Below the pieces are notes generated by a model. That model made no database searches. It saw only the letters and a program-made list of their open reading frames with translations, and was not told the origin of the DNA. Made by a program: the position numbers and the translations under genes. A DNA stretch of 64,000 nucleotides from Dokdonia sinensis. GTDB taxonomy: Bacteria; Bacteroidota; Bacteroidia; Flavobacteriales; Flavobacteriaceae. Positions 1-62,126 of the stretch are shown here, in pieces. The DNA lies in NCBI RefSeq assembly GCF_003688895.1, contig NZ_REFV01000003.1, forward strand, positions 124,001-188,000, in the 5' to 3' direction. The first letter of the stretch is position 1; each line of letters begins with the position of its first letter.

Positions 1-608
1 TTCTCATCGTAGCGTCTTGCACTGGTGGTAAGCCATTCCTGAATGACTACAAACTTACGTCTTGCGTAGAGTTTATTAATAAGGTCATTATCCTCATAAA
101 TAATGTAGCGTTCGTCAAAGGTGCCGAGCTCTTCAAAAAGTACTTTAGTAATAAACTGGCTCTGATCGCCACCGCGACAGGCCCGCCATCTAAATTGGGT
201 AAGCCACCCAGCCAGTCGTAACCACCAATGGTTTGAGTCAAATTTCATCTTAAAACAACCTGCTGGATTCCCAGCAACTACCTGCTCGATGATGTATTTG
301 TCAAAGTTTTTTGGCGGATAAGAATCTGCGTGAAGGAAATATAGAATGTCGCCTGTGGCTTGGTGTGCTCCAGCATTCATTTGGACGGCACGACCTTTAT
401 TAGACGCAATAGATTGTACAACAATGTCGCTTCGGTTGAGGAAGAAGCTTACTTTATCCGTCGTGTTATCTGAGCTTCCACCGTCTACGACTATGATTTC
501 GGCAAAGTTTGCTTTCGCGAAAGCGGAATCACACAAATGTTGCAACAACGAGGATATCGTTTCTGCTTCATTAAGTACTGGAATTACTACCGAAATACGG
601 TGTTTCAT
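1..608 (-). CDS. Family 2 glycosyltransferase of arsenosugar type, partial (cut by left edge)
   Basis: The frame is open from an ATG at 606-608 to the left edge, giving about 202 residues with no stop. It starts MKHRISVVIPVLNE, has DGGSSD at about residues 42-47 (nucleotide-sugar site), HADS at 93-96 in place of the usual DxD, and GGDQ at 146-149, all typical of GT-A family 2 enzymes. The closest family I know is TIGR04283, annotated as an arsenosugar biosynthesis glycosyltransferase. The context of ArsM and ArsS on the same strand supports that role. The 16-bp palindrome copy at 511-525 encodes AFAKA at residues 29-33, between the first strand and the DGGSSD loop. The C-terminus lies outside the window. 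Confidence 0.85.
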   Translation of the reverse strand, partial: MKHRISVVIPVLNEAETISSLLQHLCDSAFAKANFAEIIVVDGGSSDNTTDKVSFFLNRSDIVVQSIASNKGRAVQMNAGAHQATGDILYFLHADSYPPKNFDKYIIEQVVAGNPAGCFKMKFDSNHWWLRLAGWLTQFRWRACRGGDQSQFITKVLFEELGTFDERYIIYEDNDLINKLYARRKFVVIQEWLTTSARRYDE

Positions 609-669
609 AAAATAAGCAACCTAGGTTAGACAAACATACGCAAAAACCAAAGGGCTAGTTTTGTATACA

Positions 670-1470
670 CTACTGTTTATTAAGTCCCCAATCGTATTCC
701 TTGAAGGTCACCGGGGCGTCTAAACGCGCTTTGGTATCTGAATACGTGTTCACATAAGGAATTAAACTCTCATTCCCGTTAATGTAAAAATCCTTGGTAT
801 AAAATTTAAAGATGGAGGAAAGCTCGGCTTTGTCCTCAGTAATCGTGTTTTTGTCGCAATTTATAAATTCTGTTGTGGCTTTATCTAACTGTTCATTTAT
901 TTTCCCAGCCGTGTATGCTTCCCGCAATAATGGCGGACAAGAAATGGAAGCGCAATTGATAGCAAAATGAATACGCGGTTCATTCATCTTGCGCAGGATT
1001 CCATTCTCAATCCCGCCTAGAGAGAGTTCGCGATTGCCCACTTTTGCACGGCCTTTTGTCCACGGTCCATCTATATCTTTTATGCTTTTTACATTGGGGT
1101 TATCTAAAATTAAGTCTATAGTCACCGCGTTGTAGAGGTTTATATAGTAGGCGAGTAACTCCTGCACGCTCCAGTCATTATTGGGATCTAACTCGGCAAG
1201 TTGGTTTAAATATCCTTCCAAGAGTGTTCTATCTTCCGTAAATCCGTCATAATCTACCAATCCTTGTGCATTCACGTGCTTTTTCAGCAAACTGTCAAAC
1301 TGCGAGTGGTCTACATTTACTGCCGAATTTGCGGTGGTTGAAGTAAGCGGTTGTGTAACCTCTTTAGTGGGTTGTCCTTGTGAGATGATCCCGCCGGCAG
1401 AGAGGACGGCGCAACTTTGGACCGTATAAGTGATGAGTAGAATTGAAAAGAATCGTAGTATATTTTTCAT
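670..1470 (-). CDS. DUF547 lipoprotein, copy 1
   Basis: About 266 residues. I chose the ATG at 1470 because it places MKN directly before a hydrophobic segment ending in the lipobox VQSC; an upstream ATG at 1479 is possible, while the longest frame would read through the palindrome at 1504-1519. The DUF547 core (PF04784) is clear: YYINLYNAVTIDLIL, then PRIHFAINCASISCPP with two cysteines. The function of DUF547 is unknown to me; the conserved Cys and His give it a thiol-enzyme look. It is the last but one gene of the arsenosugar block and is followed upstream by a second DUF547 gene, so the two look like a duplicated pair. Probably exported and lipid-anchored. Confidence 0.85.
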   Translation of the reverse strand: MKNILRFFSILLITYTVQSCAVLSAGGIISQGQPTKEVTQPLTSTTANSAVNVDHSQFDSLLKKHVNAQGLVDYDGFTEDRTLLEGYLNQLAELDPNNDWSVQELLAYYINLYNAVTIDLILDNPNVKSIKDIDGPWTKGRAKVGNRELSLGGIENGILRKMNEPRIHFAINCASISCPPLLREAYTAGKINEQLDKATTEFINCDKNTITEDKAELSSIFKFYTKDFYINGNESLIPYVNTYSDTKARLDAPVTFKEYDWGLNKQ

Positions 1471-1559
1471 TATGGTCATATTGATTGGGCTAAATATAGG
1501 GTACGCTTTCGCGAAAGCGGACTCCCTTAACGTCACCTTAAGCTAGTTTTAGGAAAACA

Positions 1560-2504: not shown

Positions 2505-2574
2505 ATAATATTAAAGGCAAAAATGATTCCGCTTTAGTAAAAGCGTATAAAAGCTAATTTCTCGCTGAGTAAGA

Positions 2575-3465: not shown

Positions 3466-3469
3466 ATTT

Positions 3470-3650: not shown

Positions 3651-3666
3651 TGGCTTTCACTTCTTC

Positions 3667-4647: not shown

Positions 4648-4739
4648 TTTGTCATTTCCGCGAAGGCGGAAATCTCATAGTATATGCTTTTTTATTTTTA
4701 CGCTTTTTCAAGACGTCTTCAGCGTTTCGCGAAAGCGTA
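4648..4739. repeat. REP-like element plus extended palindrome element
   Basis: A REP-like sequence with core CGAAGGCGGAAATCTCAT lies at about 4648-4681 and recurs near 16997. At 4700-4739 is an extended form of the genome-wide palindrome, with the ten-base palindrome AAGACGTCTT followed by AGCGTTTCGCGAAAGCG. The same extended arrangement recurs, inverted, at 17093-17134 and more loosely at 50717-50756. Confidence 0.8.
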
Positions 4740-5590: not shown

Positions 5591-6196
5591 CTACTTTAAA
5601 TAATGTGCAAACTCTGGATAGGGCTTCAAATCTTCGGCAAAGTCGATATCGTTTAGGGTTTCTAGAGTTGCTACTTCGTAGCTTTGCAGATCTTTCGTCG
5701 TCGCTTCAAAAACCGTTTCCCCACCCCATTCTTTGTTGTAAAAAACGTCTTTTACAAGTTTATTCATCCCCAGCAAATAATATCCGCCATCTTGCGCGGG
5801 ACCTATAACCACATCATTAGTATCGAGTGCCATAAAGGCTTGTTCGATATGTTTTGGTCGCAAGTCAAATAAATCACTTCCCACGATGAGGACTTTCTCG
5901 TAGCCGTCTGAGTACGCTTTCGCGAAAGCGTTATGCATACGAACCCCTAAATCGTCACCTTCTTGTTGAAACTTTTCAAAACGCGCACCGTCCCAAATAT
6001 CATTTTCCCGCACCAAGACTGAGTAGCCTACACGTCGTGTACAATCTACTTGCGCAACCACATCACGAGTATGCTTGAGTAATGTCTTGTAAATTTCAAG
6101 CGCATTTTCCTGACCGACGCCTTGTGCAAGTCTGGTTTTGACTTTGCCCAGTTCGGGGTTGCGGGTAAAGATGAGGAGCAGGTTTTTATTTTGCAT
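5591..6196 (-). CDS. DUF2064 glycosyltransferase, TIGR04282-like, copy 1
   Basis: 201 residues. N-terminal nucleotide-binding strand LLLIFTRNPELGKVKTRLA, VLIVGSDLFDL (GSD at 106-108) and GPAQDGGYYLLG at 132-143 identify the DUF2064/TIGR04282 family, annotated as arsenosugar biosynthesis glycosyltransferases with a GT-A-like fold. The palindrome copy at 5915-5930 encodes AFAKAY at residues 90-95. The gene overlaps its upstream neighbour by 11 bp and lies 36 bp before the phosphorylase, so the genes are probably co-transcribed. A second, diverged copy lies at about 15137-15826. Confidence 0.85.
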   Translation of the reverse strand: MQNKNLLLIFTRNPELGKVKTRLAQGVGQENALEIYKTLLKHTRDVVAQVDCTRRVGYSVLVRENDIWDGARFEKFQQEGDDLGVRMHNAFAKAYSDGYEKVLIVGSDLFDLRPKHIEQAFMALDTNDVVIGPAQDGGYYLLGMNKLVKDVFYNKEWGGETVFEATTKDLQSYEVATLETLNDIDFAEDLKPYPEFAHYLK

Positions 6197-6579: not shown

Positions 6580-7092
6580 TTAATATACTTTTTTGCCAGT
6601 TTTCAGGTATTTCCCCCAGACTTTAGAATACACGTGCACGCTGTCAGTCACTTTTCCTTGTGCATTTACCACGTCGTAACCCTCGTCTTTCCACGCAAAA
6701 ATACTTCCGTAAAGGTTTTGGACATCGGTGTAACCCAATTTTTTAAGCTTCTCCCCAAAATCCTCTGAGCGTATTCCCACGGAACAATAGACGACAATTG
6801 GTTTGCTTTTATCCGCTTTCGCGAAAGAATATATGCTATCATTTACCTTTTCTGAAACCCAAATGGCATTGGGAATATGGCTCACCTCATACTCTTCTTT
6901 TTTTCGAGTATCGAGAATGAGATAGTTCTCTGCGCCCATCTTGAGCTCCTGCACGGAGATGTAGGGAACAGACCGCGTGTTGTATTGTTTGAGCAACACA
7001 TCGATATCGGTCTGTCCTATCGCTGTGGCGAAGGAGAGTAGAAGTAATATGCTTAAATAAATTTTCACTTTATATAATTTAATCTTGTTCAT
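6580..7092 (-). CDS. Exported rhodanese-like sulfurtransferase
   Basis: 170 residues. A signal peptide (about 1-27, ending AIGQ) precedes one rhodanese domain. LILDTRKKEEYEVSHIPNA and VVYCSVGIRSE with the catalytic Cys103 in its loop are standard. Rhodaneses move sulfane sulfur or act as thiol/redox relays; the export signal puts this one in the periplasm. In the arsenosugar block it might handle thiolated arsenic, but that is inference. The palindrome copy at 6814-6827 encodes SFAKA at residues 89-93, just before the active-site strand. The gene abuts two small membrane-protein genes without gaps. Confidence 0.85.
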   Translation of the reverse strand: MNKIKLYKVKIYLSILLLLSFATAIGQTDIDVLLKQYNTRSVPYISVQELKMGAENYLILDTRKKEEYEVSHIPNAIWVSEKVNDSIYSFAKADKSKPIVVYCSVGIRSEDFGEKLKKLGYTDVQNLYGSIFAWKDEGYDVVNAQGKVTDSVHVYSKVWGKYLKTGKKVY

Positions 7093-11532: not shown

Positions 11533-11868
11533 AGACCTACAAGGTTCCCGCCTACGGCGGGGAAACCTCGCAGGTCGAGATTTGTTATTTCATTCAACTT
11601 GGCTAAACATCTCCCTGACTCCCTCTTCAAAGAGGGACACTGTTGCGATTTCAGTTTTGCGTAGCAAAACATTCTTCCGAGTGTTCCCCTCTTCCAAGAG
11701 GGGCTAGGGGAGATGTTCGCGATGTTTTATTATTTTTGTTTACGCTTTCGCGAAAGCGTAATCCAATCATTTTTAAGTCCTAAATCGTACATCAGATGGC
11801 GCCAGCCGTCCGGTTCTACGTCATTTTCGATTTCGATTTCAACTTCAATTTCGATTTCAAAAGTTAAA
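11533..11868. repeat. Repeat cluster between susC and susD
   Basis: No gene. In order: an AGACCTACAAGG hairpin (about 11533-11578), a second copy of the composite ACATCTCCC...GGGAGATGT element (about 11606-11725), a perfect 20-bp palindrome TACGCTTTCGCGAAAGCGTA at 11741-11760, and a run of GATTTC/AACTTC hexamers (about 11820-11868) reaching into the 3' end of the SusC gene. Confidence 0.8.
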
Positions 11869-14800
11869 CCCTGCCTTAAACCCAAAACTTCTCGTCGTCG
11901 CATAACTCAAATCCTCCACGCCACTCACAAACCCTTGACCTTGTACGGCCAATTGTTCTGGGTCAAAATGTGGGTTTTCGGTAATGGCAAAAAGGTTACG
12001 ACCTATGATGGACAAGTCCACATCTACACCTTCCTTTAAGCCGATGAATCCTTCCTTGAGTTTAAAAGAATAGCCCACCGAAAACTGACGCAACTTTAAA
12101 AATGAGGCGTCATATATATTGTTCTCTTCGTGATTACGGTCGTAAAACTGACGGTAATAGCTCTCTGCACTCACGGCGGTTGTGTTCGGCACAAAGACTG
12201 GATTTTCCGCCGTTCCCGTATTGACTACACCCTGGGCAATAATTCCCTCTTCTGGGCGGAAAGCGGTTTCGGCGAGTTGCCCTCCTACGTTTCCTAGAGC
12301 TCTGGTTCTAGAGACGATTTCGCCTCCCTGACGCCAGTCCAGAAGGAAGGATGCGCTCCACTGTTTAAAGCGAAATTCATTGTTCCAGCCCAGATTAAAA
12401 TCTGCGGTGTAGTTTCCTAGTTTTTGGAGATTATTATCAGCTATAAAACGACCATTTTCATCTATGATAAAGTCGCCATTGTCATTTTTAAGATAGCCCG
12501 TTCCGTAAAAATCGCCTATCTCGCCACCTTCTTCTACTTGGAAGAAAACAGTTTGGTTTGCACTGTCATAAATGCGTGAGAAGGCCAATGTAAGTCGTCC
12601 GTCAGATTGTGGCAAACTTTCTACCACAGACTTATTTGTACTAAAATTAAAAGTCGTATTCCAGCGGAAGTTGTCATTTATAATTGGCGTTATCCCAGCA
12701 ATAACCTCAATACCAGAAGTCCTGACCTCGCCACCATTAACCACCTGCTGATTAAAGCCTGAGGAAATCGCAATAGGGAGCGAGATAATCTGGTCTTTGG
12801 TAAGCGCATTGTAGTAGGTAAAATCTACATTCAGTCTATCTTTAAAGAAACGTACATCTGCACCCACCTCGTAGGATGTGGTTTGCTCAGGACGAAGATT
12901 AGCATTTGGTATAAAATTCTGGGCGCTAAAAGTGGGTTGCCCCTCAAAAGGTGTTTGCGAGATAAACGCACCAGAAGTTTGGTACGGGTTTGTGTCGTTA
13001 CCCACTTGGGCTACGCTTGCGCGAAATTGTAAGTAACTCACCGCCTCTGGCAAAGCAAAAACCTCAGACCCAATAAAGCTCACACTCGCCGAAGGATAGA
13101 AAAAGGAAACATTATCTGCCGAAAATGGTGTCGCTAGCGAACTCGACCAATCGTTTCTTCCCGTTACATCGAGAAAGAGGAAATTTTTATAACCCAATTT
13201 TGCAATCCCGTAAAAGGAATTAATACGTCTCTCGGACTCAAATTGAAATGCCTCAATAGGCGAGGCCGCGTTGTTCAGGTTAAAAATCCCAGGTTGTGCA
13301 AGATTGGTGGTTTGCACTTGTTTGGTAGAAGCTACTTGGCTCAGTCTGTTTCCGCCAAGGCTTGCATTTAATGAGAAGTTGCCAAAGTCATTTTTATAGT
13401 TCAGTAGGAAATCGGTGTTTATTTCTCTGAAGAATACATCGTGTTCGGCATAGCCTCCGTTTTGGAAACGGTTTGAGCTAAAGTTTCTGAGGAACTGTCG
13501 GCGCTCGTTGCTGTAATCCATCCCGGTGCGTATGGTCAGGTCAAGATTTCGCGCAAGCGTTTGTGTAAGTGCTACATTACCAAAAACACGGTCGCGATTA
13601 AACGAGTTTCTGTTTTCTTGCAGAATAAAAAATGGGTTGTCAAAAAACGTGTAGTTAAAGGAATACTGTTGCACGCCCTCAAGTCCCGGTTGCCAGTAAT
13701 CGCGAAGGCTGTCTATATTTAACGAGCGTGGTCCCCAAGCCACGAGCGAGTAATTTACATTCTCGCTCCCGTAACCGTTAGACGGGCGGTTGTCACTTCC
13801 TGCATTTACATAGCTGATGCTCGCACGAATTTTCGTTTTGTCCGTCGGTCGAAAGTTGAGTTTGGTCGCAATGGTCTGTCTGTCGAGATTTACACCCGGA
13901 ATGATGGACTCACTACGCAGGTCAGTAAAGGAAAAACGGTAATCGCCTTTGTCAAAGCCATTGGCCACCGATACATTATTTATGGTCGTGATTCCAGTTT
14001 GATAAAAATCTTTGAGGTTGTCCGGATTGGAACGGAATTCCGTCGGAGTGATGGGCAATCCTGAATAGAGCGCCGTATCTCCACCACGCACAATCGTACC
14101 ATCGGGCAAAGTCACCGGACTATCAAACTGCGGAATCAAAATCCCCGCATCCAGCCGTGGTCCCCAAGAGTAGGTAATATTATCTGAAATTCCGCCGCCG
14201 AGACCATCTACATATTCAAACACACCGCCTTGCCCTTGCCCAAATTCATTTTGGAAATCGGGAAGCTGGAAAGCACTGTCAAAGAATATGGAGGAGTTTA
14301 TACTGATGCCGAGGCCTTTTGTGTTTTTACCGTCTTTGGTTTCGATCACGATAACCCCATTAGAAGCGCGCGTTCCATAGAGTGCGGCCGCACTAGGACC
14401 TTTTAGAACAGACACCGAAGCAATATCATCTGGATTGACCTCCATTGCGCCATTCCCAAAATCTACTTCCTGAAAACCCGCGGCCGCCTCGTTTGTAAAA
14501 TTGAAGACTGTATTGTTATTGATAGGAACTCCATCCACTACAAAAAGCGGATTGTTATTAGAGAAGGAAGCCTCACCACGTATGCTTATGCGAGATGATG
14601 AGCCTACGCCAGTAGCACCCTGTGTAATGGTAACTCCGGCTAATTTTCCAGCAAGGTTGTCCAGAAAATTGACGTTTTTCACTTCGTCTATATCTTCAGA
14701 TTTTATCGTTTGGACGGTGTATCCTAGTTCGCGAGTATTTCGTTTTACGCCCAAAGCGGTTACTACCACCTCGTCCAGTCCTTCCTGTGAAGCTTGTAGC

Positions 14801-15136: not shown

Positions 15137-15826
15137 TCAACTACAAGCGAACTGCGGGGAGCCTTTATTGAAATGTGCTTTCGTAAGCGATTCAAAAAAG
15201 CGTTCAAAAGAAGAAAGAGCAAGAACAAGCGTTCGGCTCAGGATATTTTTTAGGATTTGATATAAGCACGGGGAAAGTGTTGCTTTTTTCTGGGCAACCA
15301 CCGCCACATCTGCAAGGGTATCTATATCTGATAATGTGGGTAATAATTGCGGATTGAAGGAATTCCGCTTTCGCGAAAGCGTACTCATAATCACTTCACT
15401 CAGCTGTGCCGACTGCCACGGTAAGTTTTTAAATTGCTCAGGGCGAAAATGGCTCCTGCGCAGTCCCATCAGGTAAAATCCACCGTCCGTACTGGGTCCG
15501 AGCACCAGTGCCGAAGTCTCCAACTGTGCCACCGCCGAAAGAATATGACCCGCCGAAAGATGTGGCGTGTCGTTCCCAATGGCAATGACATTTTCAAAAC
15601 CTTGCGCATACACCTGCGAGAGCGCGTGCGTTAACCTATCTCCAAAGGAATCCCCCACCTGCTCCTTCTCCGAAAAATGAAAATACGGAAGCCCCGTATC
15701 TTCTACAGTCTCAATCGTTTGTCTATTAAGCTCCTCAAAAAGCGCCACAGACTGTCTGAAAGACTTGCGTTGTGCATCCTTCTGAGCGCTCTGGGCGAAG
15801 ATGAGTATGGCGGTTTTTTTAGTTAT
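15137..15826 (-). CDS. DUF2064 glycosyltransferase, TIGR04282-like, copy 2, start uncertain
   Basis: The conserved N-terminal strand TKKTAILIFAQSAQKDAQR is encoded up to about 15826, where the codon is ATA; no ATG, GTG or TTG lies in frame between the upstream stop at 15845-15847 and a GTG at 15746-15748. Starting at that GTG would remove the nucleotide-binding strand seen in copy 1. The rest matches the family: IAIGNDTPHLS and GPSTDGGFYLMG. The palindrome copy at 15366-15381 encodes LSRK. Compared with copy 1 the C-terminus is longer and less conserved. The upstream sequence is a tandem repeat, which may have disturbed the start. Either an unusual start codon is used or the gene is damaged. 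Confidence 0.7.
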   Translation of the reverse strand: MTKKTAILIFAQSAQKDAQRKSFRQSVALFEELNRQTIETVEDTGLPYFHFSEKEQVGDSFGDRLTHALSQVYAQGFENVIAIGNDTPHLSAGHILSAVAQLETSALVLGPSTDGGFYLMGLRRSHFRPEQFKNLPWQSAQLSEVIMSTLSRKRNSFNPQLLPTLSDIDTLADVAVVAQKKATLSPCLYQILKNILSRTLVLALSSFERFFESLTKAHFNKGSPQFACS

Positions 15827-16996: not shown

Positions 16997-17134
16997 TGTC
17001 ATTTCCGCGAAGGCGGAAATCTCATCCACACATAGCAGTTTGTACTACCTTTCCTGTGTTTCTTTTTTTCTTCAAAAGTATTTGACTTTAAGTATGCTTT
17101 CGCGAAACGCTGAAGACGTCTTAAAAAAGCGTAA
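16997..17134. repeat. REP-like copy and extended palindrome element
   Basis: A REP-like copy (about 16997-17026) identical in core to that at 4648 is followed by an extended palindrome element at 17093-17134, an inverted version of the one at 4700-4739, sharing GCGAAACGCTGAAGACGTCT. Both pairs flank arsenosugar genes. Confidence 0.8.
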
Positions 17135-24070: not shown

Positions 24071-24318
24071 CGCTTTCGCGAAAGCGGAGGTTTCGATACA
24101 ATCCGCCGAAAAGGCGGATCACTCAACCACCTTAAATTGTTAGGTTGATTAAAAATTAGAAATAAAAGCCCAATCCAAGGTGGTTGAGTGATTTCAAACG
24201 AGCGAGAGCTTGTTTGAAATAGTATCGACACTACCGAAAACAAAAGCCAAAGCAAAGGTGGTTGAGTGATTTACAAATCGCAAAAAAGCGATTTGTAAAT
24301 AGTATCGAAACCTCCGAC
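24071..24318. repeat. Palindrome and three hairpins of the GGAGGTTTCGATAC family
   Basis: This gap (23858-24353) has no gene. It holds one palindrome copy (24071-24086), one hairpin in one orientation (about 24085-24134, core ATCCGCCGAAAAGGCGGAT) and two in the other (about 24174-24238 and 24256-24318). Each hairpin has a different core but with matching arms. Confidence 0.8.
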
Positions 24319-26398: not shown

Positions 26399-26570
26399 GC
26401 CGGAGGTTTCGATACAATTTTATCATTTGCCTGTGGCAAATTGATAAAATCACTCAACCACCTCAGCGAGTTATTGAAATTAACAATTTAAAATAAAAGA
26501 ACGATCAAAGGTGGTTGAGTGGTTTTTAATTTTCGCGAAAGCAAAAATTAAAAAATGTCTTGAAACCTCC
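26399..26570. repeat. Two hairpins of the GGAGGTTTCGATAC family
   Basis: Copies at about 26399-26463 and 26507-26570 face each other. The core of the second contains part of the genome-wide palindrome (TTTCGCGAAAGC at 26530-26542), so the palindrome can lie inside the hairpin. Confidence 0.8.
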
Positions 26571-32424: not shown

Positions 32425-32440
32425 CGCTTTCGCGAAAGCG
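32425..32440. repeat. Perfect palindrome copy upstream of the LpxR-like gene
   Basis: CGCTTTCGCGAAAGCG flanked by TTTA and TACCC. Confidence 0.95.
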
Positions 32441-36200: not shown

Positions 36201-36228
36201 TATCTAAAATAGAATCTCAGTTTTGTAA

Positions 36229-36243
36229 GCTTTCGCGAAAGCG
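36229..36243. repeat. Palindrome copy
   Basis: GCTTTCGCGAAAGCG, one base short of the full 16, between the terminator and the next start. Confidence 0.9.
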
Positions 36244-39132: not shown

Positions 39133-41667
39133 TCAAATCAGGTTAAACTGCTCAAAATGATGATTCAAATGCTTTCTAAAAAGTAGGTTCCATTCATATT
39201 TATCTAAATACCCAAAAGTTGGATTCTTTGTAGTTGCCTTGGGGTTCTTTTTAAAGTAATCTTCGGCGATGGACTTTGCTTCCCAAAATTTGAGTTTGGC
39301 CGTTTCTAAACTGTCGTGACGTAAATCCTCTACAGCTCCTTTTCTGAGTAGTGGCATTTGGAAATTTTTCGGCATTCTTTCATAATTCCAAAGCGTTGCA
39401 GCTACTTTCTCAAGATGCTTTTCAGGAGTATCGATTTCAAAGTCCTGAAACTGCCCAGCAGCTACGCGATAACTTCCTTCGAGATGTTCCACCATATGCT
39501 GCGGTGTCATTATTCCCCAGTTTGCTTTTGAATCTTCAGCTAATTTTGCGAAAGCAGACCGAATCGCATCATCCGTCATCTCGACAAACGTGGTTTGCTT
39601 TTTCTCGACCATTGTGAGAATAGTTGCTACCGCAACCAGAGCAGTTGCCTCTTCATCCGTTTTACCGTTTTCATAATCTACAGGCTCAGCGTCAAAAACT
39701 TCTACATACCACTTCACAATGCCACTAGGGTGCTCTCTACCGCTCACATCACGCTCTCTTTTTTCCTTACAGGTTAAGCGTACATAAATGGTGTCATTGT
39801 GATACAGAGGACGCAGGAAACGAATATCTTCAAGCCCATAATTTGCACTTACAGGTCCTTTGTTAGGATACACAAACAGCCCTGCCGCCGCCGAAATAAT
39901 GAAATATCCGTGTGCCGTACGTTTCTTAAAAATACTGCCGTCCAGACTTGTAATATCTGTGTGCGCATAAAAATGATCCCACGTAAGGTTTGCAAAATTC
40001 TGGATATCAGTATCTGTAAGGGTGCGTTTGTGGGTTTTTAAGCTCATTCCCGGTTTGATATCCTCATAGTGGTAGGCAAACGGATGCTTTTCGGCTTCTG
40101 TGTAGGCGCCATTGGGTTGGTAAATCCCCGTAATAGTCGAAAGTGACGTAGGACTTCCCTGTACTGCACAACGCTGCATAAAATGTTTGATACCTCGCAG
40201 TCCGCCCATTTCTTCTCCCCCGCCTGCACGTCCAGGACCGCCGTGAACTAATAATGGTAATGGTGAACCGTGGCCGGTACTTTCTGGTGCACTTTCTCTG
40301 TTTAATGTTAAAATTCTTCCGTGATGGGACGCGGCTTCAATGGTGTACGCTTTCGCGAAAGCGTCATCTGCCGTAACCACACTACTCACTAGCGATCCTT
40401 TACCCATTTGAGCCAACTCAATCGCCTCGTCTATATTTTTATACGGCATCAGGGTACTCACAGGACCAAAGGCTTCCACCTCGTGCACTTGCGTATTTTT
40501 AAATGGATGATCCTCCCTGAGTAAAATAGGACTCATAAAAGCCCCTTTCCCTGCAGCATCTCCCATCGCTTCCACACTATCCAGCGTACCGTAAACGATT
40601 TGAGCGGTGGCGGTGAGTTTCTCTATTTGGCTTTTTAGAGTAACGCGCTGGTTATTATTAATAAGCGCGCCCATTCTTACTTCTCTCAGTTTTGGGTCGC
40701 CTATGACGGTACGTTCTAATTGCTTTCCAAGTGCAATTTGTACATCTTCCATTAAATTCTCTGGAACAATTGCACGACGTATCGCCGTACATTTCTGACC
40801 GCATTTTACGGTCATTTCTTTGCGTACTTCCTTGATAAATAAATCAAATTCTGGCGTTCCTGGGACTGCATCAGGTCCAAGCACAGAAGCATTTAAGCTA
40901 TCTGATTCCATTGTAAACGGAACGCTCTCTTCTATTAATCTGGGGTGAATACGGAGTTTCTGACCTGTGTGCGCACTTCCCGTAAATGTAACGACATCTT
41001 GACTTTGGGTGGTGTCTAAAATGCTAGTCGTAAGTCCTGATAACAATTGTAATGCTCCCTCTGGAAGAATACCACTATTAATAATCTCTCTAACGACAAC
41101 TTCTGTAAGAAATGCGGTTTGTGGTGCAGGCAAAACAACCGCAGGCATACCCGCCATCCAGTTTACAGCACACTTTTCTAACATTCCCCAAACCGGGAAA
41201 TTAAAAGCATTAATGTGGACAGCCACTCCCTTTTTGGGTACTAGAATATGATGCGCCATAAAACGACCGCCTCGAGATAAATCTATGGGATCACCCTCAA
41301 CTGCATAACTTTGGTCTGGGAACAACTTACGCAAACTCGCATTTGCAAACAGATTACCAAAACCTCCTTCTATATCTATCCAGCTATCAACTCTCGTTGC
41401 ACCTGTTTTATAACTGACCTCATAAAACTGCTCCTTGCGTTTGTTGAGATAAAGCGCAAGCTTCTTAATCATATTTCCACGTTGCTGGAAAGTCATATCT
41501 CGCAACACCTTCCCGTTGTCGCGACCGTATTGCAAAGCTCCGGCGACATCCAGCCCTTCGGTGCTTGTAAGACCGATGATTTCGCCATTAATGGCGTCAT
41601 ACATATTGCGGGTATTCTTATCGTCACCAGCAATCCAGTTGCCGTTTATATAGGATTCTAGAATCAT
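39133..41667 (-). CDS. paaZ: PaaZ oxepin-CoA hydrolase/aldehyde dehydrogenase with an extra C-terminal DUF1569-like domain
   Basis: 844 residues from the ATG at 41667 (MILESYINGNW, matching PaaZ starts); E. coli PaaZ has 681. Order: ALDH about 1-510 (VTFTGSAHTG, KCGQKCTAIRR holding the catalytic Cys), MaoC hot-dog hydratase about 530-670 (DHFYAHTDITSLDG; KKRTAHGYFIISAAAG), then about 150 residues with HMVEHLEGSYRVA and FRKHLNHHFEQF, which match the DUF1569/DinB-like superfamily with paired histidines. The palindrome copy at 40348-40363 encodes AFAKAY in the ALDH part, and a partial one (SAFAKLA) lies in the extension. The enzyme opens the oxepin ring and oxidises the aldehyde. Confidence 0.9.
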   Translation of the reverse strand: MILESYINGNWIAGDDKNTRNMYDAINGEIIGLTSTEGLDVAGALQYGRDNGKVLRDMTFQQRGNMIKKLALYLNKRKEQFYEVSYKTGATRVDSWIDIEGGFGNLFANASLRKLFPDQSYAVEGDPIDLSRGGRFMAHHILVPKKGVAVHINAFNFPVWGMLEKCAVNWMAGMPAVVLPAPQTAFLTEVVVREIINSGILPEGALQLLSGLTTSILDTTQSQDVVTFTGSAHTGQKLRIHPRLIEESVPFTMESDSLNASVLGPDAVPGTPEFDLFIKEVRKEMTVKCGQKCTAIRRAIVPENLMEDVQIALGKQLERTVIGDPKLREVRMGALINNNQRVTLKSQIEKLTATAQIVYGTLDSVEAMGDAAGKGAFMSPILLREDHPFKNTQVHEVEAFGPVSTLMPYKNIDEAIELAQMGKGSLVSSVVTADDAFAKAYTIEAASHHGRILTLNRESAPESTGHGSPLPLLVHGGPGRAGGGEEMGGLRGIKHFMQRCAVQGSPTSLSTITGIYQPNGAYTEAEKHPFAYHYEDIKPGMSLKTHKRTLTDTDIQNFANLTWDHFYAHTDITSLDGSIFKKRTAHGYFIISAAAGLFVYPNKGPVSANYGLEDIRFLRPLYHNDTIYVRLTCKEKRERDVSGREHPSGIVKWYVEVFDAEPVDYENGKTDEEATALVAVATILTMVEKKQTTFVEMTDDAIRSAFAKLAEDSKANWGIMTPQHMVEHLEGSYRVAAGQFQDFEIDTPEKHLEKVAATLWNYERMPKNFQMPLLRKGAVEDLRHDSLETAKLKFWEAKSIAEDYFKKNPKATTKNPTFGYLDKYEWNLLFRKHLNHHFEQFNLI

Positions 41668-41731: not shown

Positions 41732-41746
41732 CGCTTTCGCGAAAGC
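41732..41746. repeat. Palindrome copy between paaZ and paaJ
   Basis: CGCTTTCGCGAAAGC, one base short of the full length; it ends seven bases from the stop of the thiolase gene. Confidence 0.9.
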
Positions 41747-41752
41747 TTATCC

Positions 41753-43892: not shown

Positions 43893-45071
43893 TTAATCAA
43901 AAAATCGTTTTCCTTCTTTACTCATCCTTCTCAACAATGGTGAACAACGATATCTATCTTCTCGGTATTCCTCATACAATCCATCCATTTGCTCAACACA
44001 CCATCCGATGCCTTTTTCGTCGGCCCAGGCGAGTAATCCCTTGGGATAATTCACACCTTTGGTCATTGCATTGTCAATATCTTCGGCGCTGGCGATGTTC
44101 CAGAAAAGTGCGTCTGCGGCCTCATTAATAAGCATTACTAGGATACGGTCAAATATTAGATTACCTGTTTCTTCATTCTCTTTAGGGTTCGCTTTCGCGA
44201 AAGCGTTCTCAGCCTCCACATCTCCATAATTATAATATCCGCGTCCCGACTTTCGACCCAGATAACCTGCCTGACTGTAACGCTGTTGCGTAAAGCTAGG
44301 TTTGTACCTTGGGTCTTGATAAAAGGCGTTAAATACTGTTTCAGTCACAGTATAGTTTACATCATTCCCTATAAAATCCATCAGTTCAAAAGGTCCCATT
44401 CTGAATCCTCCGATAGATTTCATAGCCCAATCGATAGTCGCAAAATCTGCAATACCTTCTTCATAGATGCGTAACGCTTCTCCATAAAATGGGCGGGCCA
44501 CTCGGTTTACTATGAAACCTGGAGTGTCTTTGGCAATTGCCACGACTTTCTTCCAACGTGTAATTTCTTTCGCGCAAGCGGTCAAAACATTTTGAGAAGT
44601 TTGCACTGCAGGTATAACCTCAACCAACTTCATCAAAGGTGCAGGGTTAAAAAAATGAATCCCTATGCAACGCTCTGGTTTCTGTAAAGAAGCCGCAACA
44701 GAAGCGATAGACAGGGAAGAAGTGTTAGAGGCGATAATGCAGTCCTCGCTCACATAGCTTTCTAATTCTTTAAAAACCTTTTGCTTAATCTCAAGATTTT
44801 CAACAATAGCTTCTATGCTCAAGTCCGAATCTGCAAGGTCCTTGAGTTGGTTTACGTAGGTGATATTACCTTGAATACGAGATTTCTCTCCTGCATCAAT
44901 GCGCCCTTTCTCAATAAGCCGATTTAAAATTTTCTCGAGCGCAACTTTTGCTTTATCGAGAGCTTCCTGATTCAAGTCAAATAGTTTCACCTTGCAATCT
45001 GCCGTTGCCGCAACTTGTGCAATTCCCGAGCCCATTGTTCCTGCTCCGATTATTCCGACATTTTTTATCAT
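43893..45071 (-). CDS. paaH: 3-hydroxyacyl-CoA dehydrogenase, PaaH-like
   Basis: 392 residues. N-terminal NAD fold VGIIGAGTMGSGIAQVAA; HFFNPAPLMKLVEVIP and KDTPGFIVNRVARPF carry the catalytic region, then a C-terminal helical domain. The palindrome copy at 44190-44205 encodes NAFAKAN in the linker after RKSGRGYYNYG. It oxidises 3-hydroxyadipyl-CoA. It precedes the four-helix-bundle insertion. Confidence 0.9.
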   Translation of the reverse strand: MIKNVGIIGAGTMGSGIAQVAATADCKVKLFDLNQEALDKAKVALEKILNRLIEKGRIDAGEKSRIQGNITYVNQLKDLADSDLSIEAIVENLEIKQKVFKELESYVSEDCIIASNTSSLSIASVAASLQKPERCIGIHFFNPAPLMKLVEVIPAVQTSQNVLTACAKEITRWKKVVAIAKDTPGFIVNRVARPFYGEALRIYEEGIADFATIDWAMKSIGGFRMGPFELMDFIGNDVNYTVTETVFNAFYQDPRYKPSFTQQRYSQAGYLGRKSGRGYYNYGDVEAENAFAKANPKENEETGNLIFDRILVMLINEAADALFWNIASAEDIDNAMTKGVNYPKGLLAWADEKGIGWCVEQMDGLYEEYREDRYRCSPLLRRMSKEGKRFFD

Positions 45072-46024: not shown

Positions 46025-46525
46025 TTACTTCAAGCATTTAAAATAGTCAAAAGGCTCTTCACAAGCATCACATTTAAATAATGCTTTACAGGCTGTGGAG
46101 CCAAACTGGCTTACTAAATGCGTTTCTGTCGAGCCACAATTAGTACATTTTACAATTTTCTTATTTCCCAATAATGCTTCTTTGTCTGCCTCGGAGGTTA
46201 AGGGGGCTGCAATTCCATAATCTTCCAGTGCTTTTCGGCCACGAGGAGTAATCCAGTCTGTGGTCCAAGCGGGTGATAGTATGAGCTGGATTTTTGCGGT
46301 TTTTCCCGCTTTAGCGAAAGCGGAAACAATATCATCCCCAATAACATCCATCGCCGGGCATCCAGAATACGTGGGAGTAATTTTTACCTTAACGATTCCA
46401 TCAACCTCAATCGCCTCCCGAACAACACCCATATCCATAATAGAAAGTACAGGAATCTCAGGATCTGAAACCGAAGTTAAAATGGCTTCCAAGTGGGGTT
46501 CTATGTTCTGAGTTGTTAAAGTCAT
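46025..46525 (-). CDS. paaD: Phenylacetyl-CoA epoxidase subunit PaaD
   Basis: 166 residues from the ATG at 46525 (MTLTTQN); the frame runs a little further upstream. The N-terminal SUF/MIP18-like domain with SVSDPEIPVLSIMDMGVVREA and TPTYSGCPAMDVIGDDI precedes a Zn-ribbon-like tail CTNCGSTE...CKALFKCDACEEP. PaaD helps mature the oxygenase iron site. A palindrome variant with one mismatch (46307-46322) encodes AFAKAGK. Confidence 0.92.
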   Translation of the reverse strand: MTLTTQNIEPHLEAILTSVSDPEIPVLSIMDMGVVREAIEVDGIVKVKITPTYSGCPAMDVIGDDIVSAFAKAGKTAKIQLILSPAWTTDWITPRGRKALEDYGIAAPLTSEADKEALLGNKKIVKCTNCGSTETHLVSQFGSTACKALFKCDACEEPFDYFKCLK

Positions 46526-47879: not shown

Positions 47880-47882
47880 TTA

Positions 47883-48842: not shown

Positions 48843-48937
48843 AACAATTGTATTTTTATAATGCTTTCGCGAAAACTCTCTAGCCTATGGGCATTTTCCC
48901 CTTAAGAAAGAAGTTAAGTTTTTCTCAAAACCAATAA

Positions 48938-53708: not shown

Positions 53709-53724
53709 CGCTTTCGCGAAAGCG
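53709..53724. repeat. Palindrome copy
   Basis: Full 16-base CGCTTTCGCGAAAGCG in the gap after the caspase gene. Confidence 0.95.
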
Positions 53725-56700: not shown

Positions 56701-57023
56701 ACACCTCCTATACGAACAGCAAGATACTTGCTATCTGCCGTAAAGAATCCATTTGTAGGGGAAATGACTGGGACATCGGCTAGAATGTTCTTGCTTCCAG
56801 TCGCCCATAACTTAATGCGGCCGTCACTTCCTAGAGTTGCGACATATTTCTCATTTGGTGATGTCACGATTTTATTAATATACGCGCTATGATGAGCGGG
56901 CACGGTAGGAAAAACACTTTCTTGAGCTATTAATTTTGTAAAACCAAGGAAGCTCATCACTACTAGGACTATTTTCGTATACGCTTTCGCGAAAGCGTAC
57001 ATATTACCATAATCTCGTCTCAT
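53736..57023 (-). CDS. Secreted caspase-family protein with WD40-like repeats
   Basis: 1095 residues. An export signal lies in residues 8-34; the palindrome at 56982-56997 encodes AFAKAY at 10-15, in the n-region, so the start may be Met8 (57002). About residues 40-690 hold WD40-like beta-propeller repeats (SPNEKYVATLGSDGRIKLW, NDFLISSGEGNELILWDIHTG). Two copies of RNLTVEDD lie at 732-739 and 782-789. A caspase-type domain at about 845-1090 has His926 (FYYAGHG) and Cys981 (ILDACQSAG). The stop of the papain-like gene is 2 bp upstream, so the two are probably coupled. Confidence 0.85.
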   Translation of the reverse strand: MRRDYGNMYAFAKAYTKIVLVVMSFLGFTKLIAQESVFPTVPAHHSAYINKIVTSPNEKYVATLGSDGRIKLWATGSKNILADVPVISPTNGFFTADSKYLAVRIGGVLQMREVPSLKIVSQFVDIEGACPALEGSGFYYVENKYASTEWRIYYQKSPKSIPTVVYEEPVDRATSMISGYARWLSLSPDGSKLMFTHTDHKTFIYDLPSKEITNPMNFGYEFLPNGNVLSMAAQELQEFQFYVTDLKGKIKWNKKFALKQFKSDLERLYSISTDEERIYFATEEGLLAINYINGKELIYKDLGAVSGIGSTKKALWVGDSKEHDIELVNPKKMSERATIAFKSLITPTSLTASRDAMSFFTGDFRSKDPKMVTVTPGGVRTKEINFPIDVTKSSFGNKGKLIATSMIRERALRVYDLEKEEYTNFTAELGYNDKVVLSDDGSIAGLRGDEFISFYDIKGNRTILQSPKAKVADYNANHPIAISPDNSWAAVMVKVKRGETIYFDNYIAMFDLNKGEELYRVKYDGISGIYAISNTEYITVSNYGLKVDYFNASSGKFLSRKDIRGAFNSDINDINAQNTLLASVQAKGDRIFISDLVNGTLHFVLKGHESEIENVQFLGNDFLISSGEGNELILWDIHTGERAGNFYLFEGSKDWAFVTPQGHFDGSQTAIKTMYYVNGDAILPLEQLYEGYYIPNLLGIVLDHKRPEDNDIDLNNLKPAPFVALTYKDGSRNLTVEDDAQAEQIIASNENASLILDTQAPEDKIIEIRLYHNDKRVIGDARNLTVEDDVKDDTTQKTYNLKLLPGKNVFKAIAVNSQKTESPPAILEIVYEGKSDLPLSRGIVLHSLTIGIDTYKNGKYNLNYAKADATSFEESIKQGMMGITKSQNATFIKDTEATKEKITQALKSIAQEAQPQDIFIFYYAGHGVMNNEKEFYIVPTDVTQLYGNDTSLAQKGISASDLKELSTNILAQKQLYILDACQSAGALNTIAARGAAEEKAIAQLARSTGTHWLTASGSEQFATEFAELGHGVFTYALLEALSGKADSGDKRITVNELKAYLESRVPEISEKYKGSPQYPSSFGFGQDFPVSLTRE

Positions 57024-59492: not shown

Positions 59493-61970
59493 TTATCCTT
59501 CAAAATCGTCGTCTCCACCATCATCACCACGACCACCGCGCTCACGCTGTTTTTTCTGGTTAAATCTGTAGGTGAACGAGAGATTTACCTGTCGCACCCG
59601 CCACTGGAATTCGCTATCGCTTCTAAAGGTAGGCGTATCTGTAAATGAACGTCTCACACGGGAGTTAAAAAGGTCGCTCACGTTAAGGCCAATGGTCGCA
59701 TTATCATTTATAATGTCTTTACTGAATGCTAGATTTACCGAGATAAGTCCTTTAGTATCTGTCTGAGCATTATTTGTAGGACCTCTATAAAACATATTGG
59801 TCTGCCAGTCTATTTTATACGGCAAGGTCACTTTTGCACTACCTCGAGCAAAGTAACTTGTATTCTCCGCCCCGAAGTCAGTACCATTAAATTCTCCCTC
59901 CGATACAAACCTGAAGAAATTAAAGCTACCGTTGAGTCGCAACCATTTGGCAGGATTATAAAGCACACCAGCTTCAAAACCATAACGTTCATTACTGCTC
60001 AGGTTTATGGGAAGGCTTCGTACGATGGGAATACCGTTAGGCGTATCTTCTCCTGTTTCTTCCTGAATGCGCTCAAAACTATCGGTCTCTCTCTGGTAGT
60101 ATATGGAAGATGTTAAGGTAAGTTTATCCCAGCGTTTGAGATATCCTAGGTCAAAAGCATTTGCAAATGCCGGTCTCAAATTAGGGTTTCCCTGAAAGAT
60201 ATTTGCCTCACTTGACCGTGACGGGAACGGATTTACAGACCTTCCTCTGGGCCTGTTGATTCTACGATTATAACCTAGGGTAATATTCTCGCGATCATTA
60301 AGTTCGTAAGTTAGATTGAGCGTAGGAAACAGGCCGTCAAAAGTTCGGTCAAAGTCAACCAATAAATCATTTACAACATCTGTCTGGACACTTTCTTCAT
60401 CTAAGGAGCCACGAAGTCTCGTGTGCTCATATCGCAATCCTGCAAGAAAAGAGAAATCACCAAATTTATTTCCATACTGCGTATACACCGCATTTACATC
60501 TTCATTATAAGTAAAAATGTTAGATAGGTCATCGTTTCTTAAAAACGGGCCACCTGGGAATTCCTCTTCGGTTGCGAGCTGATTTGTCACCGTTTCCTCA
60601 AAAGTTCCTCTGTACCCAGCTTCAAACTGTGCATTCTCGCCTATGGGCAAGACATAATCCACTTGACCTAGGTATTCGTTCTGAGTTTCATTTATGAGAA
60701 TGTCTTCAGTGGGCAGTATTTCATCTTCTGGAAAGGTCTGGAACTCTTCGATGATAGAACGTTCTGTCTCTTCATCATCTGCCCACTGGAAATCTACGGT
60801 GAGTTCGTGACCGTCTTCATTGAATTTTGTGATATAGTTTAAGGAGAGCTGGAAACTCGTATCTTCTTCGGTTTCTAGCTCCGTACGGGTTCTGGATTCT
60901 AGGGGTGCACCATCTGGTCCAAAATCGTCTGTAAAATTATCGGTCATATCTTCATCATCTCCCAATCTCAGGAACGCACTAGCGGTCACCGAGGTTTTAT
61001 CACTCAGAAAGTATTCCATACCAAGGTTGGTATTAAAACCTCGATTGAGACGTTCGTACTCTCGATTTTCTAAAACCGTAAGGTCTACATTGCCGTCCTC
61101 TAAAAATTCATTCCTAAAAAATGCATTTCCTGGGGATTGTCTATATCGTATTCCTGTTGTATTAAAAATGTTGAACTTATCTGTTCTTAAATTAATATTT
61201 CCAGTCAATCCACTTTGTAACGGAACCCCGTAGTTTGCTTGAATCTGTCCGTTAAGTCCCAGTGTTTTTTCCTTTCTCAGGATAATATTAAGAATTCCTG
61301 CGGTTCCTTCGGCGTCGTAGCGTGCGCTGGGAGAGGTAATGACTTCTACCCTTTCAATCGCTTCTGCGGGCAATTGTTGCAATGCGTCTGTACTCCCAAA
61401 TCCCGCTATGGCACTGGGCCTTCCATTTATAAGAATGCGCACATTCCCATTTCCTCTCAGAGCAATCGCTCCATCTACATCTACAGTTACCGAAGGCACA
61501 TTGCTCAATGCATCACTTACCGTTGCACCACTTGTGGTTAAATCCTTACCTATGTTATAGATTTTCTTATCTAGTCTGACTTGCACCTCTGTAGTTTCGG
61601 CACGTACGATTACTTCATTTAATGCTTGAGAATCCGTCTCAAGACTTATATTGGGGAGTGTAATATCACTAATTAGTTTTTGATTTGTAAGCGTTTTAGG
61701 CTCGTAAGAAATAAACTCAAATTTTACAGAGTAGGTACCTGATGGTACTTCAATATTGTATTCACCTTTCTGGTCTGTAATCCCACCTGTTACGATTTTT
61801 CCGGCTTGGTCTGTAAAGGATACTGTGGCATATTCCATTGGAGTGTTTGTATCGGCATCAAAAACTTTTCCGTTTACACTAACCTCTCTTTTGATTTGAT
61901 TATCAGGACGTTGTCCAAATGCAATAGAGGTAACACCCATTAATGTTACCAATAGTAATTTTTTTAGCAT
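59493..61970 (-). CDS. TonB-dependent receptor (OMP_b-brl type), copy 1
   Basis: 825 residues from the ATG at 61970 (MLKKLLLVTLMGVTSIAFGQ). A carboxypeptidase-like regulatory domain (about 25-105, VNGKVFDADTNTPMEYATV), a plug (SDALSNVPSVTVDVDGAIAL) and a barrel of the OMP_b-brl group. The end is a Gly/Asp-rich acidic tail (GDDGGDDDFEG), unusual for a beta-barrel C-terminus, which normally ends in Phe. The substrate is unknown. Confidence 0.88.
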   Translation of the reverse strand: MLKKLLLVTLMGVTSIAFGQRPDNQIKREVSVNGKVFDADTNTPMEYATVSFTDQAGKIVTGGITDQKGEYNIEVPSGTYSVKFEFISYEPKTLTNQKLISDITLPNISLETDSQALNEVIVRAETTEVQVRLDKKIYNIGKDLTTSGATVSDALSNVPSVTVDVDGAIALRGNGNVRILINGRPSAIAGFGSTDALQQLPAEAIERVEVITSPSARYDAEGTAGILNIILRKEKTLGLNGQIQANYGVPLQSGLTGNINLRTDKFNIFNTTGIRYRQSPGNAFFRNEFLEDGNVDLTVLENREYERLNRGFNTNLGMEYFLSDKTSVTASAFLRLGDDEDMTDNFTDDFGPDGAPLESRTRTELETEEDTSFQLSLNYITKFNEDGHELTVDFQWADDEETERSIIEEFQTFPEDEILPTEDILINETQNEYLGQVDYVLPIGENAQFEAGYRGTFEETVTNQLATEEEFPGGPFLRNDDLSNIFTYNEDVNAVYTQYGNKFGDFSFLAGLRYEHTRLRGSLDEESVQTDVVNDLLVDFDRTFDGLFPTLNLTYELNDRENITLGYNRRINRPRGRSVNPFPSRSSEANIFQGNPNLRPAFANAFDLGYLKRWDKLTLTSSIYYQRETDSFERIQEETGEDTPNGIPIVRSLPINLSSNERYGFEAGVLYNPAKWLRLNGSFNFFRFVSEGEFNGTDFGAENTSYFARGSAKVTLPYKIDWQTNMFYRGPTNNAQTDTKGLISVNLAFSKDIINDNATIGLNVSDLFNSRVRRSFTDTPTFRSDSEFQWRVRQVNLSFTYRFNQKKQRERGGRGDDGGDDDFEG

Positions 61971-62111
61971 AGCAATTTTTCTTATTTCCTTTTTTTGGAC
62001 TTTCAAAGTTATCCTAGGTTTAAACTGCTTTACCCAATCTTTTGTTAAAAGAAAACGACAAACGTTAAAAGCCTGTTTGCCGTAAATATTGTTTGTGCTG
62101 TTGCTGATTAT

Positions 62112-62126
62112 GCTTTCGCGAAAGCG
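62112..62126. repeat. Palindrome copy
   Basis: GCTTTCGCGAAAGCG, one base short of 16, between the two TonB-dependent receptor genes. Confidence 0.9.

What the first reader, a model, noticed from the sequence alone, without database searches (positions are those of the whole stretch)
511..62126. Dispersed 16-bp palindrome in about 27 copies, in coding and non-coding DNA
CGCTTTCGCGAAAGCG or near copies occur about every 2.4 kb. Examples: 1504, 5915, 11743, 15366, 18599, 21091, 24071, 32425, 37562, 40348, 44190, 53709, 56982. In genes all three frames appear: AFAKA (511, 5915, 21091, 40348, 44190, 56982), RFRES (18599, 37562), LSRK (7964, 15366). No frame contains a stop on either strand, so it can occur in genes harmlessly. 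Selection seems to act on the DNA, not the peptide. It may be a chromosome-organising or uptake signal, or a mobile seed sequence. It is not parS-like and mostly lacks a T run.
Basis: partly seen in the sequence, partly recalled or inferred. Interest (0 to 1): 0.8.

Follow-up and report, generated by a model that had tools for sequence, protein, structure and literature searches.

The report
Genome-wide evenly spaced Dokdonia DNA palindrome
A 14-16 letter DNA palindrome occurs in hundreds of evenly spaced, almost unchanging copies across the chromosomes of the marine bacterium Dokdonia, and also in two other genera of its family and in some phages, which suggests that an unidentified protein reads it as a genome-wide DNA signal.

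Summary
In detail: 29 near copies in the window, 13 exact, against 0.3 expected. The window is from Dokdonia. The genome holds 630 exact 16-mers; all 18 genomes held for the genus carry 369-905 copies of the 14-bp core GCTTTCGCGAAAGC. Of 397 sampled genomes of the family only Dokdonia, genus g210 and the separately placed genus g11 exceed 19. Sites occur around the whole chromosome and avoid one another below about 1-1.5 kb, in g11 too. They are five times commoner between genes than expected, in all gene arrangements. Between two species 45 sites show 1 change in 720 bases, against 5.3% in flanks. In conserved genes they replace sequence without changing length, so they are not inserted seeds. 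Two integrase-bearing islands lack them; some phages carry and conserve them. Best reading: binding sites of an unknown dimeric protein acting genome-wide on DNA; main rival: an uptake-type signal. The protein was not found. Open-access paper searches found nothing on it.

The parts
510..525 (.). site, 1 mismatch (outermost base)
1504..1519 (.). exact 16-bp site
2530..2545 (.). 3-mismatch hit, membership doubtful
4722..4737 (.). partial (one-armed) site TTTCGCGAAAGCG
   Evidence: class of partial sites
5915..5930 (.). exact 16-bp site, in an open frame (AFAKA)
6814..6829 (.). 2-mismatch partial site GCTTTCGCGAAA
7963..7978 (.). partial (one-armed) site, 3 mismatches
11743..11758 (.). exact 16-bp site, between open frames of 150 aa or more
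13014..13029 (.). 3-mismatch hit, membership doubtful
13544..13559 (.). 3-mismatch hit, membership doubtful
15366..15381 (.). exact 16-bp site, in an open frame (LSRK)
17095..17110 (.). 4-mismatch partial site GCTTTCGCGAAA
18599..18614 (.). exact 16-bp site, in an open frame (RFRES)
21091..21106 (.). exact 16-bp site, in an open frame (AFAKA)
24071..24086 (.). exact 16-bp site, between divergent open frames
26528..26543 (.). 4-mismatch partial site TTTCGCGAAAGC
28247..28262 (.). site, 1 mismatch (outermost base)
29749..29764 (.). partial (one-armed) site, 3 mismatches
32425..32440 (.). exact 16-bp site, between open frames
36228..36243 (.). site, 1 mismatch (outermost base), between open frames
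37562..37577 (.). exact 16-bp site in an open frame (RFRES); exact in the 6 other Dokdonia loci listed; mostly VLKES or TLKES in the other genera listed, same length
40348..40363 (.). exact 16-bp site in an open frame (AFAKA; PaaZ-like, named by eye); exact or 1 mismatch in 6 of 7 other Dokdonia loci listed
41732..41747 (.). site, 1 mismatch (outermost base)
44190..44205 (.). exact 16-bp site in a linker of an open frame (PaaH-like, named by eye)
44565..44580 (.). 3-mismatch hit, membership doubtful
46307..46322 (.). site, 1 internal mismatch, in an open frame (AFAKA; PaaD-like, named by eye); exact or 1 mismatch in the 3 other Dokdonia loci aligned, and exact copies with like flanks in 4 more
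48862..48877 (.). 3-mismatch partial site GCTTTCGCGAAA
50256..50271 (.). 3-mismatch hit, membership doubtful
53709..53724 (.). exact 16-bp site, between open frames
56982..56997 (.). exact 16-bp site, in or just upstream of a gene start
62111..62126 (.). site, 1 mismatch (outermost base), between open frames

Best explanation
The palindrome is the recognition site of an unidentified sequence-specific protein, probably a homodimer that reads two inverted half-sites (consensus TTA-CGCTTTCGCGAAAGCG-TAA, with a weak depletion of C further out on each 5' side). It acts on DNA as DNA, independently of transcription, about once every 3 kb around the whole chromosome. Each site serves about 1-1.5 kb on either side, so a second site nearby adds nothing and is lost, which gives the exclusion zone. 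Sites arise in place by base substitutions at tolerant positions (intergenic DNA, or codons where AFAKA, RFRES or LSRK is acceptable) and are then kept by purifying selection at each site. Temperate phages of such hosts are held to the same rule. I think the most likely role is DNA-level organisation or maintenance: nucleoid bridging or looping, or protected repair and replication of self DNA. Shown: abundance, lineage distribution, spacing, position, conservation, presence in phages. Inferred: the protein, its dimeric binding, the range that a site serves, the substitution route, and the organising role.
For: All 18 genomes held for the genus carry the core, 570-905 copies in the 13 that are at least 90% complete. 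The 14-bp core is strict: only 17 of 106 one-mismatch copies differ inside it. 45 aligned exact sites show 1 change in 720 bases against 5.3% in flanks, while 157 six-mismatch look-alikes diverge like their flanks, 5.2% against 5.8%. Pairs under 1 kb: 35 against about 150 expected. Forty-seven one-armed partial sites also keep away from full sites, median 1903 bp against 976 for random places, 0 of 5000 permutations as far, so they seem to count as sites. A separate clade, g11, has the same core and the same rule: 0 of 41 gaps under 1 kb against 8.6 expected. Density between tandem, divergent and convergent genes is 1.02, 0.92 and 1.56 per kb, which does not look like a promoter or a terminator signal. 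Each of the 40 chromosome blocks sampled holds at least 6 copies with up to one mismatch. The palindromic form suits a dimer. At one phage head-gene position the core stays intact while flanks differ at 42-47 of 80 bases.
Against: No protein was found; the one reader type tested, an extra ParB/Noc-type paralogue, does not follow the sites. The distribution (core genome, permissive places, even spacing, absent from new DNA) is also what uptake sequences show (PMC2397512, passages read). Even spacing alone does not show organisation. In g210 the spacing was not significant (15 gaps, CV 0.80 against 0.91, p 0.30). Site density varies mildly with GC (r 0.41) and falls with distance from the presumed origin (r -0.34). 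The dimer is inferred from symmetry only.
Confidence: 0.5

Rival explanations
1. It is a DNA uptake sequence: cells preferentially take up conspecific DNA that carries it, and the copies spread and persist by molecular drive through transformation.
For: The distribution matches DUS/USS closely: even spacing, missing from two integrase-bearing islands, many copies between genes, strong conservation. DUS average 97% identity where the surroundings are about 85%, and are absent from recently acquired genes (PMC2397512, passages). Riemerella columbina, in the same family by that paper, is competent and prefers its own DNA, with no uptake motif established (PMC7965970, passages). ComEC is present in all 18 genomes tested. 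The pilus-platform family PF00482 is somewhat commoner among site carriers (5 of 13) than others (7 of 42).
Against: Known uptake motifs are not palindromes (recalled). PF00482 (type IV pilus/T2SS platform) was not found in 8 of 13 site-bearing genomes, among them the one-contig genomes G016, G006, G008 and G230. ComEC is equally present without sites. Sites are conserved at one phage head-gene position over long divergence. Divergence did not change significantly with distance from a site (inconclusive).
Confidence: 0.25
2. It is a self marker or Chi-like signal for a DNA-processing nuclease or repair machine, which spares or recombines DNA that carries the site; phages keep the site to survive in the host.
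For: One site per about 3 kb, redundancy within about 1 kb, conservation in phage genes, and presence in two separate lineages, as a mobile defence or repair system could produce.
Against: Known Chi signals are 5-8 bases and directional (recalled); this is a 14-16 bp palindrome. Stretches of at least 24 kb without sites persist in the chromosome. No candidate system was identified or searched for.
Confidence: 0.12
3. It is a methylation-linked iterated palindrome like HIP1, made and kept by a methyltransferase-coupled repair process.
For: Highly iterated palindrome; one-base deviations pile up at the outermost base, as reported for HIP1 (PMC4390886, abstract).
Against: The strict core is 14 bp, longer than usual methyltransferase targets (recalled). 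The inner TCGCGA outside full sites is not commoner in Dokdonia (314 in 1.6 Mb) than in other genera (370 in 1.5 Mb). An exclusion distance is not expected from a repair process (inference). Methyltransferases were not searched for.
Confidence: 0.06
4. It is a mobile repeat (REP/RAYT type or another seed) that inserted at many places.
For: Many copies; one-armed variants exist; Y1 transposase is present in 3 of 3 g11 genomes.
Against: Replacement without length change at three conserved gene sites. Y1 transposase found in only 1 of 10 Dokdonia genomes (E 1e-5), while G023 with 14 such matches has no site. Sites avoid one another and are missing from two island-like stretches.
Confidence: 0.02

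Closest known systems
DNA uptake sequences (DUS of Neisseria, USS of Pasteurellaceae)
   Same: Hundreds of copies, even spacing, many between genes or in permissive codons, strong conservation, missing from new DNA.
   Different: Perfect palindrome with a 14-bp strict core; type IV pilus platform not found in 8 of 13 site-bearing genomes tested; uptake not tested; sites conserved in some phages.
HIP1 (GCGATCGC) of cyanobacteria
   Same: Highly iterated palindrome in genes and between genes, lineage-specific, deviations mostly at the outer base.
   Different: Nearly twice as long; one per about 3 kb with an exclusion zone; no cognate methyltransferase shown; a different phylum.
Chromosome-organising site families (matS/MatP, Noc and SlmA sites)
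   Same: Dispersed palindromic sites suited to a dimeric DNA-binding protein.
   Different: Many more copies (recalled comparison), spread from origin to terminus; no ParB-type paralogue follows the sites; protein unknown.
Chi sites
   Same: About one per few kb, lineage-specific, also useful to phages (recalled).
   Different: Long palindrome and so not directional.
REP/RAYT repeats
   Same: Many palindromic copies.
   Different: 46% of exact copies in coding DNA; no insertion at the gene sites compared; no transposase that follows the sites.

Membership tests
DUS/USS uptake sequences | hundreds of copies, far above chance | tested here: met
DUS/USS uptake sequences | more even spacing than random | tested here: met
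   (Dokdonia, g11; not significant in g210 with 15 gaps)
DUS/USS uptake sequences | under-represented in recently acquired DNA | tested here: met
   the two largest site-free stretches of nine read carry integrase-like genes; copy number does not rise with genome size
DUS/USS uptake sequences | type IV pilus type uptake machinery in the carriers | tested here: not met
   PF00482 in 5 of 13 site-bearing genomes and 7 of 42 others; other pilus genes not searched
DUS/USS uptake sequences | biased uptake of DNA that carries the motif | not testable with these tools
   needs a transformation assay
HIP1 and alternate HIPs | highly iterated palindrome | tested here: met
HIP1 and alternate HIPs | one-base deviations biased to outer bases | tested here: met
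   89 of 106
HIP1 and alternate HIPs | cognate DNA methyltransferase in carriers | not tested
   no methylome and no complete gene list at hand
ParB/Noc sites | a ParB-family paralogue that follows the sites | tested here: not met
   one ParB of about 300 aa in each of 30 genomes; extra matches in 5 genomes (1 Dokdonia, 4 others), not following the sites
matS-type macrodomain sites | restricted to one chromosome region | tested here: not met
REP/RAYT | Y1 (RAYT-type) transposase in carriers | tested here: not met
   1 of 10 Dokdonia genomes (E 1e-5), 0 of 1 g210, 3 of 3 g11, 5 of 15 others
REP/RAYT | extragenic insertion | tested here: not met
   151 of 329 exact copies in coding DNA; no length change at three gene sites
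Chi sites | short directional sequence (recalled) | tested here: not met
   14-bp perfect palindrome
Chi sites | modulates RecBCD/AddAB | not testable with these tools
   needs biochemistry

The most novel reading that the evidence does not exclude
A previously undescribed genome-wide 'milepost' system in Bacteroidota: an unknown dimeric protein reads a 14-20 bp palindrome about every 3 kb with a built-in exclusion distance. It has spread between distant genera and binds resident phages to the same rule, either as a nucleoid-spacing code or as a self-DNA code.
Probability: 0.4. Interest if true: 0.9.

Novelty: new variant of a known kind. Interest (0 to 1): 0.78.

Why it matters
Why some genomes fill up with one short word (HIP1, DUS, USS) is a long-standing question, usually confounded by short motifs. 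Here the word is long enough that every exact copy is significant, and single sites can be followed across species, coding frames and phages. Two separate lineages have the same word and the same spacing rule, so a shared protein should be findable by comparing gene content and by pull-down. If it organises DNA, it would be a genome-wide organiser with a spacing rule in a phylum where few nucleoid proteins are known (recalled). If it is an uptake signal, it would be the first in Bacteroidota that I know of and would point to an uptake route without the usual pilus platform.

Tried and rejected
Mini-hairpin idea: GCGAAAGC (recalled as an unusually stable DNA mini-hairpin) might act on its own. 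Rejected: outside full sites it is rarer in Dokdonia (66 in 1.6 Mb) than in other genera (112 in 1.5 Mb), and the remaining copies mostly sit in one-armed sites.

ParB/Noc-type reader: rejected. RAYT transposon: rejected. Type IV pilus uptake: PF00482 was not found in 8 of 13 carriers. ComEC is present in all 18 tested and so uninformative.

Site-centred recombination: divergence by distance from a site, G003 against G016, 197 kb aligned. No bin exceeded |z| 1.5; divergence was slightly lower within 1 kb (5.2-5.6%) than at 1.5-3 kb (6.7-6.9%), so it is inconclusive.

Named plasmid and phage collections with a 32-base query gave only weak hits at E 3-9. Paper searches for the exact sequence or for highly iterated palindromes in Bacteroidetes gave no paper; Dokdonia with palindromes gave 5 and shorter sub-words 26 (25 listed), of which I saw listings only, and no title bears on this.

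The first run of the gap script failed on a type error and was repeated. Finding the trans-acting protein by gene-content comparison was not possible with the sequence available.


Full report
Observation. One search finds 29 near copies of CGCTTTCGCGAAAGCG in the window (13 exact, 6 with one mismatch, 1 with two, 9 with three), against 0.30 expected. The window lies in genome G000.

Whole genome and lineage. G000 holds 630 exact copies and no copy of the reversed control. All 18 genomes held for the genus carry the 14-bp core: 369-905 copies, and 570-905 in the 13 that are at least 90% complete. The number does not grow with genome size (899 in 3.3 Mb, 903 in 5.5 Mb), so accessory DNA seems poor in sites. 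Of 397 genomes drawn from the family, 80 have at least one core, but only six exceed 19: two Dokdonia, three of genus g11 and one of g210. Of 395 genomes drawn from the phylum, 22 have a match and only G000 exceeds 6 (some genomes are in both samples). An rpoB tree of 28 genomes puts g210 next to Dokdonia (94/85) and g11 in a separate clade; two changes of the label are forced by well-supported branches.

Stray copies elsewhere. In several genera with few copies the sites cluster, with the same 933-bp spacing in G118, G127, G141 and G254 and G200. Of 11 stretches fetched, I read the genes of four, from G118, G127 and G376: they carry what look like metal-resistance genes (Fur-like regulator, RND pump, P-type ATPase, judged by eye), and most of the 11 match one another over long stretches at 67-97%. 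I read this as DNA that gained sites in a site-bearing host and then moved (inference).

Anatomy. In 1.6 Mb of the one-contig genome G016 (40 blocks of 40 kb) there are 329 exact and 106 one-mismatch copies. Of the 106, 89 differ only at the outermost base, so the strict unit is GCTTTCGCGAAAGC. In 118 purely intergenic sites the flanks read TTA...TAA, with weak depletion of C on the 5' side out to about -17. In 43 g11 sites the flanks share the T at -3 and -2 and add a T at -9 in 83%. Next to the full sites there is a class of one-armed sites, TTTCGCGAAAGCG without the other arm: 41 against 0.06 expected in masked G016 sequence, and 1 in 72 loci of other genera.

Position. My own simple gene caller, not a published one, marks 89% of the sample as coding; 177 of 329 exact sites are intergenic, 151 coding and 1 at an edge. 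Density between tandem, divergent and convergent genes is 1.02, 0.92 and 1.56 per kb, so there is no promoter preference and at most a mild convergent excess. Coding frames are AFAKA 98, RFRES 29 and LSRK 24. Coding copies of the core lean towards the first fifth of genes (70 of 209), partly perhaps from wrong starts.

Spacing. Gaps between exact sites are far more regular than random (CV 0.64 against 0.95 +/- 0.05). Counting full and partial sites (504), pairs closer than 1 kb number 35 against about 150, and the deficit stays with an intergenic-matched null. The 47 partial sites also avoid full ones: median 1903 bp against 976, 0 of 5000 permutations. G003 shows it too (7 gaps under 1 kb against 34.2), and so does g11 (0 against 8.6 in 41 gaps); g210 gave no significant result with 15 gaps. 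With the origin placed at the GC-skew minimum, mean density is 13.7, 13.3, 12.1 and 11.3 per 40 kb from origin to terminus.

Where sites are missing. The nine largest site-free stretches of the G016 sample were read by eye. The top two, 24 kb each and running to the end of the sampled block, carry integrase-like genes: one with methylase-like genes and part of a metal-resistance set, one with repeated small genes that include a ParD/ParE-like pair. The next two are mostly single open frames of 13.0 and 12.3 kb. Another holds a type I restriction-like set. The rest look ordinary. Two 2.5-kb N runs are not in these stretches.

How sites arise and persist. At 37562, 46307 and 40348 the orthologues of other genera listed align at the same length with 6-11 mismatches to the palindrome, for example VLKES or TLKES where Dokdonia has RFRES (at most 33 rows per site, and part of the output was cut). 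Position 44190 lies in a linker with indels, so it says nothing about length there. One Dokdonia locus (L005) lacks the 40348 site. Between G003 and G016 (5.8% mismatches over 197 kb), 45 exact sites show 1 change in 720 bases against 5.3% in the flanks, about 38 expected; in 15 one-mismatch sites all 4 changes are at the outermost base; near-matches with 6 mismatches diverge like their flanks (157 cases, 5.2% against 5.8%). Between genera positions mostly differ: of 22 G027 (g11) sites 5 could be compared with G016 and 2 are shared, and of 9 G230 (g210) sites 4 could be compared and 1 is shared; two of the three shared ones rest on alignments of only 16 and 24 residues that may owe to the palindrome itself.

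Phages. The exact 16-mer occurs in 41 stretches from 30 IMG/VR contigs; 11 of the 30 hold two or more (counted). Single hits in GC-rich contigs may be chance. I searched 30 proteins from 9 of the 30 contigs, 6 of them multi-site: they include terminase, portal, head, tape-measure, tail-sheath, baseplate, integrase and a Mu-like transposase. In 82 non-independent pair comparisons (pairs over 97% identical dropped) the core diverges 3.2% and the flanks 25.9%; in 3 of the 82, all involving L109, the site is absent from the other phage. At a head-gene position in L135, L122 and L134, which is not the copy that brought those contigs into the set, the core is intact while 42-47 of 80 flanking bases differ; in L118, L120 and L132 it has one mismatch. 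Contigs were chosen for having a site, so the overall figure is biased; this position is less so. Related prophages (33-49% identity of the head protein) in three of 397 family genomes lie in hosts with 0, 0 and 5 cores, and in the last the cores are on other contigs. The hosts of the site-bearing phages are not known.

Tests of readers. One ParB of about 300 residues in each of 30 genomes; the extra matches of 5 genomes do not follow the sites. PF00482 in 5 of 13 site-bearing and 7 of 42 other genomes. ComEC in 18 of 18. Y1 transposase in 1 of 10 Dokdonia, 0 of 1 g210, 3 of 3 g11 and 5 of 15 others. The divergence-by-distance test was inconclusive.

Interpretation. The distribution is nearly that of DUS/USS as described in PMC2397512 and PMC7811141 (passages read), which is the strongest argument for an uptake signal. 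The palindrome, the pilus platform not found in several complete site-rich genomes and the conservation in phages argue for a dimeric DNA protein acting inside the cell. I put 0.5 on the latter, 0.25 on uptake and 0.12 on a Chi-like or self marker. The HIP1 paper (PMC4390886, abstract and one find) offers a methylation model, which the 14-bp strict core does not suit.

Novelty. Nothing in print was found, within an open-access library only and from listings. It belongs to the known kind 'iterated genomic signal word', but differs in length, symmetry, spacing rule and phage occurrence, and its function and reader are unknown.

Noticed in passing
window 4653-4737 and 17000-17130: Two copies of an intergenic unit with a hairpin CATTTCCGCGAAGGCGGAAATC next to a one-armed palindrome overlapping AAGACGTCTT; the 18-base hairpin core is absent from the 1.6 Mb G016 sample and from 72 loci of other genera.
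   Followed up: partly
window 47836-47882: A dispersed repeat of about 45 bp (around CTCTCTGCCCTTCGGGCATCTCTCCCAGAGGGAGAG) with many 85-96% matches in Dokdonia genomes.
   Followed up: no
L216-L217 (G016:C1 about 2.85-2.875 Mb): Integrase-like gene followed by many small genes with a repeated ParD/ParE-like pair (named by eye), resembling a chromosomal cassette array, without any site over 24 kb.
   Followed up: no
L246-L255: A metal-resistance-like island shared at 67-97% identity among several genera of the family, with palindromes inside its genes.
   Followed up: partly
L124, L117, L129: Site-bearing phage contigs also encode DNA methyltransferase-like proteins (L117, L129) or an integrase (L124).
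   Followed up: no
Dokdonia G017, G013, G001: The outermost base of the palindrome seems to have shifted in some species: few exact 16-mers (248, 230, 138) but 685, 570 and 385 copies of the core.
   Followed up: partly
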